Part shown: piece by piece, positions 3,639 to 59,301 of the stretch
Position numbering within the stretch: position 1 is the stretch's first letter
How the letters are laid out: every line of letters starts with the position of its first letter
NCBI RefSeq assembly: GCF_003003795.1
Contig: NZ_PVWK01000026.1
Span: forward strand, 1-64,000
From: Stenomitos frigidus ULC18
GTDB taxonomy: Bacteria > Cyanobacteriota > Cyanobacteriia > Leptolyngbyales > Leptolyngbyaceae
Reading direction: 5' to 3'
DNA: 64,000 bases
Position numbers and translations under genes: made by a program
The notes under the pieces: generated by a model
Databases searched by the model: none
Seen by the model: only the letters and a program-made list of their open reading frames with translations
What the model was told of the DNA's origin: nothing

Positions 3639-4175
3639 ATGCCCCTTCCTCACTGGCTTTCAAGTGTTACTCAAGCGCGCCAACCCCTGCAAACAAGGAT
3701 ACTCAGCGATCCGTACTATCGCTTTCAATCAGTGGCAGAACTTGAGCTTGCGGCTAAATTAGGAGTCAAGATTGACGTGAATCAGGCAGGCGTAGACGAT
3801 TGGCTGCGACTGCCTGGTCTATCGATTCATCAAGCGCGATCGCTCGTCGAATTGACTCAAGCTGGAGTTCAGTTGCACTGCCTGGAGGATATCGCTGCAG
3901 CGTTGAGCCTGCCTGTTATGCGTTTAAAGCCCCTGGAGCCAGTCCTGGTTTTTTGCTTTTACGACGATGAGAGCGTTTGTACGATCAAGCCAGTGAACCC
4001 CAACACGGCGACGCTTGAGTTGTTGATCAGAATTCCTGCTGTCGATACCTATCTGGCACGGGCGATCGTGGCAAACCGTTCAATGGGCCCTTACCGTAAT
4101 CTGATCCACCTTCAACGGCGCTTGTCGCTGCCCAGTCAGCTAGTCGAAGAATTGATGCATTATCTTAAGTTTTAA
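3639..4175 (+). CDS. ComEA-like helix-hairpin-helix protein
   Basis: The 178-residue protein contains two helix-hairpin-helix-like units. The first, about residues 42-75, has the IDVNQAGVDDWLRLPGLS pattern; the second, about 120-175, has PVNPNTATLELLIRIPAVD followed by a YRNLIHLQRR hairpin. ComEA-type HhH domains bind double-stranded DNA without sequence specificity. No signal peptide or lipobox is seen, so it may be cytoplasmic, unlike classic ComEA. The start at ATG 3639 was chosen because the 35 codons before it are repeat-like spacer sequence that happens to stay open. Its last 36 bp overlap the 3' end of lepB on the other strand. Role in DNA uptake or repair is inference. Confidence 0.75.
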   Translation: MPLPHWLSSVTQARQPLQTRILSDPYYRFQSVAELELAAKLGVKIDVNQAGVDDWLRLPGLSIHQARSLVELTQAGVQLHCLEDIAAALSLPVMRLKPLEPVLVFCFYDDESVCTIKPVNPNTATLELLIRIPAVDTYLARAIVANRSMGPYRNLIHLQRRLSLPSQLVEELMHYLKF

Positions 4176-57099: not shown

Positions 57100-57152
57100 A
57101 CACCTAATTTCTTTAGCAAGTAACGAACATCCTTGCTAAAGAAATTAGGTGT
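57100..57152. repeat. 21-bp perfect inverted repeat
   Basis: The arms acacctaatttctttagcaag (57100-57120) and cttgctaaagaaattaggtgt (57132-57152) are perfect inverses around an 11-bp loop. The stem is AT-rich and has no T tract. It ends 37 bp before the ATG of the PLD gene. Confidence 0.8.
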
Positions 57153-57189: not shown

Positions 57190-58971
57190 ATGGGCACTCT
57201 CACCAGAGAGACCTGCCCTTATCAGCAGGCTTACTTCACCACTCTTCCTCGCTTAGCCGTGCCTCTCTTCCATCATCAATTTCACTCCTCACTGGGTATC
57301 CTACTGGCGCTTGGCTTATCTGCCTGTCAACAAGGATACTCTCAGCCCGTTCGTCCGACGCCTCTACCGCAGGAGGATTTGATTCAGGTCTACACCAATC
57401 ATGAACCTGCCTCGCGCTATACGGAACCCTATCGCAAACAGACGCGAGACGGAGACGATTTAGAGCAAAAAATTGTTGATGCGATCGCGGCAGCTCATGC
57501 AACGGTAGATGTTGCGGTTCAGGAACTCCGTCTGCCCAAAATTGCGGCGGCTCTAGTGGCGAGACAGGCAGCAGGCGTGAAAGTGAGAGTCATCTTGGAA
57601 AACACGTACTCACGCCCGTTCAGTACCTTTACAGCTGCAGAGATTGCACAACAGCCAGACCGCGATCGCGGTCGCTACGAAGAGTTTCGTCAACTTGCCG
57701 ATCGCAATAGTGATGGGCAACTGAGCCAGGAGGAAATCGATCAAGGGGATGCGTTGGTCATGCTCGATCGTGCCAAAATCCCCCGCCTTGATGACACCGC
57801 GGATGGTTCCGCTGGTAGTGCCCTCATGCATGACAAATTTGTTGTTGTTGATGGTCGCACAATCATCGTCACGTCGGCAAACTTCACCACGAGCGATGTA
57901 CATGGCGACTTTAAATCGCCTGCCAGCCGCGGCAATGCGAACAACATGCTGAAAATTACTAGCACAGAGCTAGCAGCTCTGTTCACGCAGCAGTTTAACC
58001 TGATGTGGGGCGATGGTCCCGGTGGCAAATTAGACAGCAAATTTGGCATCAAAAAGCCCTTTCATCCAGCGCAATTGGTCACGATCGGCTCAACCACTGT
58101 TGAAGTCCAATTTTCACCGACTCGTCCATCGATACCCTGGGAGCGTAGCAGCAATGGCTTGATTGGCAAAACACTCAGTGCTGCTAAGAAATCGGTTGAT
58201 ATGGCACTGTTTGTCTTCTCTGAACAAAAATTGGTCAATCTACTAGAAACGGTGCACCAAAACGGTGCCGAAGTGAGAGCTCTCATTGAACCAGGCTTCG
58301 CCTACCGTTCCTATAGTGAAGCGCTCGATATGTTGGGTCTTGCCCTTGCCGATGACTGCAAGCAGGAAGCCGCCAATCGTCCCTGGCAGAACCCAATTAC
58401 GACTGTTGGTGTACCTCGTCTCCCGCCTGGTGACCTGCTGCACAACAAATTTGGCATCGTCGATCAGGAAACCGTCATTACTGGGTCTCACAACTGGACA
58501 GATGCTGCCAATACAGGCAATGACGAGACTGTATTGGTGGTGCATAGCGCGATCGTGGCTGCTCATTACCAGCGAGAATTTGAACGACTCTATACAAATG
58601 CTATTTTGGGCATCCCGCCTGCTGTCCAAAAAAAGGTTAATGCTCAGCGACAGCAGTGTCCATCGCGTCAGGCGAACGCACCAGCACCAATCAGTCATCA
58701 GGCTAGTGGCAATCGCCCCAAGACCCGACATGCGGCTACTACCCCGATCGCCCATCCAAACCCAAGCGAGTCGCCATCTATACCGCGAGTAAACCTCAAC
58801 ACAGCTACTCACGCAGAGATCGATGCCTTACCAGGTGTCAGCAAAGCACTCGCAACGCGCATTATTGCCGCCCGTCAACAGCATCCCATCACGTCTCTAG
58901 AGGATTTAGATCGAATTCCTGGTGTCGGGCCCAAACTCCTGAAGCGATTAGAACCTCAGGTAACCTGGTGA
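57190..58971 (+). CDS. PLD-family lipoprotein with EF-hand loop and HhH DNA-binding domain
   Basis: The 593-residue protein has a hydrophobic lipoprotein signal with lipobox LSAC (GILLALGLSACQQG), so it should be lipid-anchored outside the cytoplasm. Two phospholipase D HxKx4D motifs are complete, at 57829 (MHDKFVVVDG) and 58441 (LHNKFGIVDQ), both followed by N/GSxN-type segments; two motifs make a full active site. Between them and near the first is an EF-hand calcium loop DRNSDGQLSQEE (57700-57735). The C-terminus (from ~58790) is a ComEA-like helix-hairpin-helix domain (VNLNTATHAEIDALPGVSK). The likely activity is a calcium-influenced nuclease or phosphodiesterase on extracellular DNA. Start uncertain: ATG 57190 used, GTG 57259 gives a classic 22-residue lipoprotein signal. 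Confidence 0.85.
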   Translation: MGTLTRETCPYQQAYFTTLPRLAVPLFHHQFHSSLGILLALGLSACQQGYSQPVRPTPLPQEDLIQVYTNHEPASRYTEPYRKQTRDGDDLEQKIVDAIAAAHATVDVAVQELRLPKIAAALVARQAAGVKVRVILENTYSRPFSTFTAAEIAQQPDRDRGRYEEFRQLADRNSDGQLSQEEIDQGDALVMLDRAKIPRLDDTADGSAGSALMHDKFVVVDGRTIIVTSANFTTSDVHGDFKSPASRGNANNMLKITSTELAALFTQQFNLMWGDGPGGKLDSKFGIKKPFHPAQLVTIGSTTVEVQFSPTRPSIPWERSSNGLIGKTLSAAKKSVDMALFVFSEQKLVNLLETVHQNGAEVRALIEPGFAYRSYSEALDMLGLALADDCKQEAANRPWQNPITTVGVPRLPPGDLLHNKFGIVDQETVITGSHNWTDAANTGNDETVLVVHSAIVAAHYQREFERLYTNAILGIPPAVQKKVNAQRQQCPSRQANAPAPISHQASGNRPKTRHAATTPIAHPNPSESPSIPRVNLNTATHAEIDALPGVSKALATRIIAARQQHPITSLEDLDRIPGVGPKLLKRLEPQVTW

Positions 58972-59048: not shown

Positions 59049-59244
59049 GCAGCCGCCAACAGACGCTTTAGCCGCCTGAATGCTTACACGGTGGGGAACA
59101 CAAAGTTTTGACAGCATAAGCAGTCGGCCTGACGCTGATCGACAGCAGGCGACGGTGATCTTACAAAGCCTCCAGGCTGATTGCCCAGTAATGGTTTGTC
59201 AGAGTCCAGAACCCTGGACGCAACCCGAACGCTCAAACGGCATC

Positions 59245-59287
59245 TTCTCGTGAAGAAACCCGATTTTTTCGTGAAGAAACCCGATTT
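59245..59287. repeat. Tandem TCGTGAAGAAACCCGATTT repeat
   Basis: Two direct copies of a 21-bp unit carrying gaagaaacccgattt lie end to end. They match the half-site of the GAGAAACC-GTTTCT palindrome family seen at 16354 and 34492. Confidence 0.6.
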
Positions 59288-59301
59288 CTGAGTCAGCGCT
59301 C

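What the first reader, a model, noticed from the sequence alone, without database searches (positions are those of the whole stretch)
57190..58971. Lipoprotein with two PLD motifs, an EF-hand and an HhH DNA-binding tail
The sequence shows lipobox, two complete HxKx4D motifs, a canonical EF-hand calcium loop and a ComEA-like helix-hairpin-helix. The fusion suggests a surface nuclease that binds and cuts double-stranded DNA, perhaps in a calcium-dependent way, in DNA uptake or scavenging. A second HhH protein exists at 3639-4175.
Basis: partly seen in the sequence, partly recalled or inferred. Interest (0 to 1): 0.6.

Follow-up and report, generated by a model that had tools for sequence, protein, structure and literature searches.

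The report
Cyanobacterial envelope nuclease with calcium loop
This gene encodes a membrane-tethered enzyme of the phospholipase D superfamily, found in nearly all cyanobacteria and probably a DNA-cutting enzyme, that carries a built-in calcium-type loop and, in many species, a DNA-gripping tail; it is a candidate for the unidentified enzyme that processes DNA taken up by these bacteria.

Summary
The parts are real. It is not a one-off fusion: 264 of 291 sampled genomes of the class carry a strong homologue. EF-loop positions 1 and 12 and both HKD motifs are invariant in 139 of 139 members. The HhH tail is optional (115 of 159 members; at least 15 changes on the tree). Some lineages replace the lipid anchor by a membrane helix, which suggests periplasm rather than surface. 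Two results bear on function. Loss of the gene tracks loss of the DNA-uptake channel ComEC (251/13/9/18 in 291 genomes), partly through genome reduction. And ComEC of this class lacks the metal-binding nuclease motif (0 of 31), which sister classes keep (8 of 9 genomes). My reading: an envelope nuclease, perhaps Ca-controlled, that may do the strand-degrading step cyanobacterial ComEC cannot. Nuclease activity is likely; the uptake role is a testable guess. The S. elongatus orthologue appears in print as "the only identified PLD".

The parts
57259..58971 (+).
57316..57327 (+). Lipobox L-S-A-C; lipidation Cys is residue 46 of P0001
   Evidence: strict lipobox pattern in 107 of 139 members, relaxed pattern in 132 of 159
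57700..57735 (+). EF-hand-like 12-residue loop D171..E182, an insert in PLD lobe 1 between its second strand and HKD1
   Evidence: positions 1 and 12 invariant in 139 of 139; helix-loop-helix in the model
57829..57852 (+). First HxKx4D catalytic motif (H214, K216, D221)
   Evidence: invariant in 139 of 139; PLDc 2 stretches
58168..58590 (+). Second PLD lobe, best PLDc_2 stretch, residues 327-467
58441..58464 (+). Second HxKx4D catalytic motif (H418, K420, D425)
   Evidence: invariant in 139 of 139
58699..58776 (+). Disordered linker before the tail (residues 504-529)
   Evidence: pLDDT under 50
58786..58965 (+). ComEA-like helix-hairpin-helix tail (residues 533-592)
   Evidence: HHH_3 56.1 bits; tail found in 115 of 159 members

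Best explanation
The protein is a membrane-tethered periplasmic nuclease of the PLD superfamily. Shown: one chain holds both HKD half-sites as a two-lobed enzyme; a conserved EF-hand-like insert sits in lobe 1; a flexible linker carries an optional ComEA-type HhH tail; the N-terminus is a lipoprotein signal or, in some lineages, a membrane helix. Inferred: the two histidines cut a phosphodiester through a phospho-histidine intermediate, which needs no metal (superfamily mechanism, from general knowledge); the HhH tail holds DNA near the membrane; periplasmic Ca2+ in the loop shapes or gates the active-site entrance rather than doing catalysis. Most likely role (a guess): it cuts DNA arriving in the periplasm and supplies the strand-degrading step that the nuclease-less ComEC of this class cannot do itself, with nucleotide scavenging as a by-product. 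My probabilities: nucleic-acid nuclease 0.7; periplasmic, membrane-tethered 0.8; Ca binding 0.75; role in processing DNA for uptake 0.35.
For: Fold and motifs. Sequence neighbours are mostly nuclease-type PLDs: NucT models, DrmC, MitoPLD, Nuc. GG/S motifs are TS/GS in lobe 1 and GS in lobe 2 (first residue T 125, G 28, S 5, A 1 of 159; second lobe GS in 159 of 159); PMC8004604 (passages) gives GS-GS for nucleases and GG first for true phospholipases. A DNA-binding HhH tail in 115 of 159 members, with at least 15 gains or losses. Near-universal in the class: 264 of 291. Association with ComEC in 291 class genomes: both 251, this gene only 13, ComEC only 9, neither 18 (odds ratio 38.6, Fisher p 3e-14 ignoring phylogeny). 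Outside family f2, five complete-looking genomes in three families (f15, f36, f27) lack both genes yet keep the control gene KaiA. ComEC of the class lacks the MBL HxDxDH motif in 31 of 31 loci, against 1 of 10 loci (9 genomes) in sister classes; Pfam Lactamase_B in 0 of 13 class ComECs and 4 of 4 outgroup ComECs scanned. PMC8579336 (passages) calls the fate of the nontransforming strand in CTD-less organisms an open question.
Against: No biochemistry. Top fold matches include a phospholipase (7e0m, Z 33.6) as well as the PLD3/PLD4 exonucleases (Z about 31) and phosphatidylserine synthases, so the fold does not fix the substrate. The ComEC association leans on streamlined and symbiotic genomes; KaiA gives odds ratio 75 on the 64 chosen genomes, so this set does not separate function from genome reduction by counts alone. 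13 genomes keep this gene without a ComEC match and 9 the reverse, some of them nearly complete (G043, G151, G517, G524; G103, G309, G522). G428 has a broken copy with ComEC intact. The S. elongatus competence screen (PMC7125226, passages) names no such gene in its main text. No com or pil gene lies beside it in 100 loci; the commonest neighbour is a divergent aminotransferase class-V gene, 58 loci.
Confidence: 0.45

Rival explanations
1. Nutritional or housekeeping periplasmic nuclease: it degrades DNA and RNA reaching the periplasm for phosphate and nucleosides, with no part in transformation; the HhH tail just raises affinity.
For: Near-universal presence in free-living genomes and loss in obligate or streamlined ones fits scavenging as well as uptake. 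NucT itself is linked to purine salvage and only mildly to transformation (PMC5714352 passages). No competence-gene neighbours.
Against: Synpcc7942_0302, the probable orthologue, showed no significant expression change under phosphate starvation (PMC7401256 passage). The gene is lost together with ComEC in three non-f2 families that keep KaiA, which plain scavenging does not predict.
Confidence: 0.3
2. Lipid enzyme: a phospholipase D, or a transphosphatidylase, acting on phosphatidylglycerol; this is how the S. elongatus gene is named in print.
For: Closest solved fold is a bacterial PLD, 7e0m Z 33.6, with lipid synthases further down. Membrane tether. PMC7401256 (passage) treats Synpcc7942_0302 as the only identified PLD.
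Against: GG/S motifs are of the nuclease kind. Scores are far below the cardiolipin synthase cut-off (20.8 against 290). The DNA-binding HhH tail has no obvious use on lipid. A whole-class phospholipid enzyme should be kept by symbionts and Prochlorococcus-like genomes, which lost it.
Confidence: 0.15
3. Barrier or defence nuclease: it destroys incoming phage or transforming DNA in the periplasm, so that its loss would raise, not lower, transformation.
For: Weak similarity to the DISARM protein DrmC (NCBIfam 64 bits, cut-off 133; PADLOC 55.7 bits).
Against: Core-like, single-copy distribution without defence neighbours seen is unlike defence genes; the DrmC match is at the level of the shared PLD domain.
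Confidence: 0.1

Closest known systems
NucT (Helicobacter pylori), PLD-family nuclease
   Same: Periplasmic, membrane-associated, HKD nuclease linked to natural transformation and purine salvage (PMC5714352 passages)
   Different: NucT has one HKD per chain and works as a dimer; no EF insert and no HhH tail; P0001 scores 53 bits against a cut-off of 297
PLD3/PLD4 5'-exonucleases
   Same: Two HKD motifs in one chain; VIA Z about 31 over about 325 residues; membrane-anchored ssDNA exonucleases (anchor recalled)
   Different: Animal lysosomal proteins; 17-20% identity; no EF loop or HhH tail noted
Serratia plymuthica PLD (7e0m)
   Same: Best fold match, Z 33.6, rmsd 3.0 over 330 residues; nuclease-like GS motif
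   Different: Described as a phospholipase; no EF insert or HhH tail mentioned in the passages read
ComEA DNA receptor
   Same: HhH tail of the HHH_3 kind; membrane-tethered on the periplasmic side
   Different: ComEA has no nuclease lobe; P0001 41.9 bits against a cut-off of 152
EndA and the ComEC C-terminal nuclease
   Same: Proposed to fill the same step: degrading one strand at the membrane during DNA import (PMC8579336 passages)
   Different: Unrelated folds, metal-dependent (fold statement recalled)
DISARM DrmC
   Same: PLD-like domain
   Different: 64 bits against a cut-off of 133; no DISARM neighbours seen

Membership tests
PLD superfamily | Two HxKx4D motifs forming one active site | tested here: met
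PLD superfamily | Two-lobed PLD fold | tested here: met
   pLDDT 88.8; Z 33.6 to 7e0m
PLD-type nuclease | GS-type motif after each HKD (phospholipases GG first) | tested here: met
   criterion from PMC8004604 passages; lobe 1 is TS in most members, so met in its second residue
PLD-type nuclease | Cuts nucleic acid | not testable with these tools
   needs enzyme assay
NucT (NCBIfam equivalog) | Score over curated cut-off | tested here: not met
   53 against 297 bits
ComEA (TIGR01259) | Score over curated cut-off | tested here: not met
   41.9 against 152.35 bits; HHH_3 domain itself is met
EF-hand | Pfam EF-hand score over cut-off | tested here: not met
   11.9 against 25.9 bits
EF-hand | Ca-coordinating loop residues 1, 3, 5, 12 between two helices | tested here: met
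   Ca binding itself not tested
Bacterial lipoprotein | Hydrophobic signal ending in a lipobox Cys | tested here: met
   for this protein; 132 of 159 members by a relaxed pattern
DISARM DrmC | Score over curated cut-off | tested here: not met
   64 against 133 bits
Cardiolipin synthase (TIGR04265) | Score over curated cut-off | tested here: not met
   20.8 against 290 bits
Natural-transformation machinery | Co-inheritance with ComEC | tested here: inconclusive
   251/13/9/18 in 291 genomes, confounded by genome reduction
Natural-transformation machinery | Required for transformation | not testable with these tools
   not named in the main-text passages of PMC7125226; its supplementary table was not open to me

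The most novel reading that the evidence does not exclude
The last common ancestor of oxygenic cyanobacteria lost the nuclease site of ComEC and took on a separate, Ca2+-controlled, membrane-tethered PLD nuclease, later fitted with a ComEA-like DNA-binding tail in many lineages, as its strand-degrading DNA-entry nuclease: a third kind of entry nuclease beside EndA and the ComEC C-terminal domain.
Probability: 0.25. Interest if true: 0.8.

Novelty: new variant of a known kind. Interest (0 to 1): 0.55.

Why it matters
Cyanobacteria are transformed daily in laboratories, yet how one strand of incoming DNA is removed in them is not established in the sources I read: the review PMC7690421 puts a question mark after nuclease activity for ComA, and PMC8579336 calls the step open for ComEC proteins without the nuclease domain. 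A near-universal, membrane-tethered, single-copy PLD enzyme with a DNA-binding tail gives one gene to delete and one protein to assay. The EF-hand insert in a PLD lobe would also be an uncommon way to put an otherwise metal-independent nuclease under Ca2+ control.

Tried and rejected
Viral contigs: no relatives. Conserved neighbourhood: no com or pil genes; a divergent aminotransferase class-V gene (cysteine-desulfurase-like start, recalled) in 58 of 100 loci, no operon. Sister classes of the phylum: generic PLD proteins with E from about 1e-4 to 1e-23, two HKD motifs in most, none with an EF loop in lobe 1 by pattern, so not counted as orthologues. DISARM, cardiolipin synthase, ComEA and NucT membership: tested, cut-offs not met. 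KaiA as control: on the 64 chosen genomes it also associates strongly (odds ratio 75), which is why I do not rest the uptake role on co-occurrence; what KaiA adds is only that it is kept in five non-f2 genomes that lack both genes. DprA is kept in G048, G160 and G172, so not the whole competence set is gone there. First EF pattern missed L036, L049 and L161; I recounted them by eye as EF-positive (149 of 159 positive, 10 negative). The crude ComEC motif search was superseded. L234 is cut by the locus edge. The genome contigs list is the 80 best of 522 and so favours HhH-bearing relatives; the 115 of 159 figure is therefore not a census. Literature: ten searches; none listed a paper on this architecture; this covers open-licence PMC papers only.

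Full report
WHAT IS THERE. Pfam supports the PLD lobes (PLDc_2 146.4 bits, 2 stretches) and the tail (HHH_3 56.1 bits) over their cut-offs, but gives the EF-hand only 11.9 bits against 25.9. The likely start is GTG 57259 rather than ATG 57190, because ORFs of five genus relatives open too late for the longer form.

CONSERVATION. A search of 58 relatives found homologues in 56. In a class-wide sample 264 of 291 genomes have a match at E <= 1e-30, and most have one copy. In 139 non-redundant full-length members (153 of 156 loci were full length; L023, L098 and L118 were dropped) both HKD motifs are invariant, and the EF loop has D at position 1 and E at position 12 in 139 of 139, N/D at position 3 in 138 and D/N at position 5 in 139. 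With 20 more distant members added (159 in all), the EF insert is present in 149 and cleanly missing in 10: five f2 members, four f31 members and L177 (three of the 149 were recounted by eye). A tree of 114 of the 159 rows, built without the EF and tail columns, needs 3 changes for the EF insert and 15 for the HhH tail, of which 4 are forced by well-supported branches. So the EF insert is old in the class with few losses, and the tail is evolutionarily labile (115 of 159 have it). The sample is biased toward close relatives of this protein (one search keeps the best 80 of 522).

ANCHOR. An N-terminal hydrophobic segment is present in 158 of 159 members (the other has no N-terminus in its ORF). 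A relaxed lipobox is seen in 132, and 13 have a hydrophobic helix without a nearby Cys. Swapping a lipid anchor for an uncleaved helix points to the periplasmic face of the inner membrane in those lineages, not to the cell surface. This is inference; no localisation was measured.

STRUCTURE. AlphaFold2 with a 55-row alignment (55 of the 76 loci then held) gives mean pLDDT 88.8. The EF region is helix 157-170, loop, helix 180-186. Fold matches: 7e0m Z 33.6 over 330 residues, PLD3 and PLD4 Z about 31, vaccinia F13 about 30, phosphatidylserine synthases 27-29. The fold does not settle the substrate. By sequence the nearest models are mostly nucleases or nuclease-like (DrmC, NucT, MitoPLD, Nuc). 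The GG/S motifs are TS or GS in lobe 1 and GS in lobe 2; by the criterion in PMC8004604 (passages) this is nuclease-like.

LINK TO DNA UPTAKE. In 291 class genomes, 251 have both this gene and ComEC, 13 this gene only, 9 ComEC only and 18 neither (compared by hand; Fisher p 3e-14 ignoring phylogeny). Many of the 18 belong to family f2 genomes of 1.6-1.9 Mb. On 64 chosen genomes all 41 holders have ComEC; of 23 non-holders 20 lack it and 3 have it (G103, G206 with a fragment, G428 with a broken copy). The control gene KaiA is kept by 8 of the 23 non-holders, among them all five non-f2 genomes that lack both genes, but KaiA too associates strongly overall (odds ratio 75). DprA over its cut-off is kept by 6 of the 23. 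The link is therefore suggestive and confounded by genome reduction.

COMEC HAS LOST ITS NUCLEASE SITE HERE. The ComEC proteins of the class (31 loci) have no HxDxDH motif after residue 400; nine of ten loci from nine genomes of sister classes in the same phylum have it. Pfam finds Lactamase_B in 0 of 13 class ComECs (7, 6) and in 4 of 4 sister-class ComECs. That the Cyanobacteria profile is mainly without Lactamase_B is already in print (PMC6299819 passage); the contrast with sister classes is from these calls. PMC8579336 (passages) calls the degradation or displacement of the nontransforming strand in such organisms an open question. A membrane-tethered nuclease with a DNA-binding tail that is near-universal in exactly this class is a natural candidate.

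WHAT IS IN PRINT. In locus L216 (contig of 2,696,255 bases, which I recall as the S. elongatus PCC 6301 chromosome) the gene lies beside an SSB gene and then mreB. mreB is Synpcc7942_0300 (PMC7381316 passages), and Synpcc7942_0302 is called the only identified PLD of S. elongatus, without a significant expression change in phosphate starvation (PMC7401256 passage). I infer that 0302 is the orthologue. The competence screen PMC7125226 does not mention it in the passages found; the screen scored 1885 loci and I could not open its tables. If 0302 scored neutral there, the uptake role is weakened at least for S. elongatus, whose protein has no HhH tail.

VERDICT. I hold nuclease activity likely (0.7), Ca binding likely (0.75) and the uptake role possible (0.35).

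Noticed in passing
window 57100-57152: Perfect 21-nt inverted repeat with an 11-nt loop just upstream of the gene; the stretch folds with z -4.7; no other perfect copy in the genome; none found in the matching flank of six genus relatives.
   Followed up: partly
window 3639-4175: 178-residue protein with two HHH_3 stretches, homologues in 34 of 39 genomes, no defence-library hit: a conserved cyanobacterial HhH protein of unknown role.
   Followed up: partly
L207-L215, L218, L220, L231-L250: Cyanobacterial ComEC C-terminal part has no recognisable metallo-beta-lactamase motif; in L210-L214 (f13 and f2 members) ComEC is cut short to about 430-530 residues.
   Followed up: partly
L221-L230; G060:C75, G073:C28, G096:C201, G081:C135: In sister classes an HhH (ComEA-like) ORF lies within about 1 kb of ComEC, unlike in this genome, where the two HhH genes of the window are on another contig than ComEC.
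   Followed up: no
L178 (G428:C1:4922105-4922857): Broken copy of the gene with several stops in a 5.5 Mb genome whose ComEC is intact and whose DprA match is below cut-off.
   Followed up: partly
L077-L156 and others: A class-V aminotransferase gene (cysteine-desulfurase-like) lies divergently just upstream of the PLD gene in 58 of 100 loci, but not in this window.
   Followed up: no
window 59239-59293: Short direct repeat 'cgtgaagaaacccgattt' in tandem downstream of the gene (seen).
   Followed up: no
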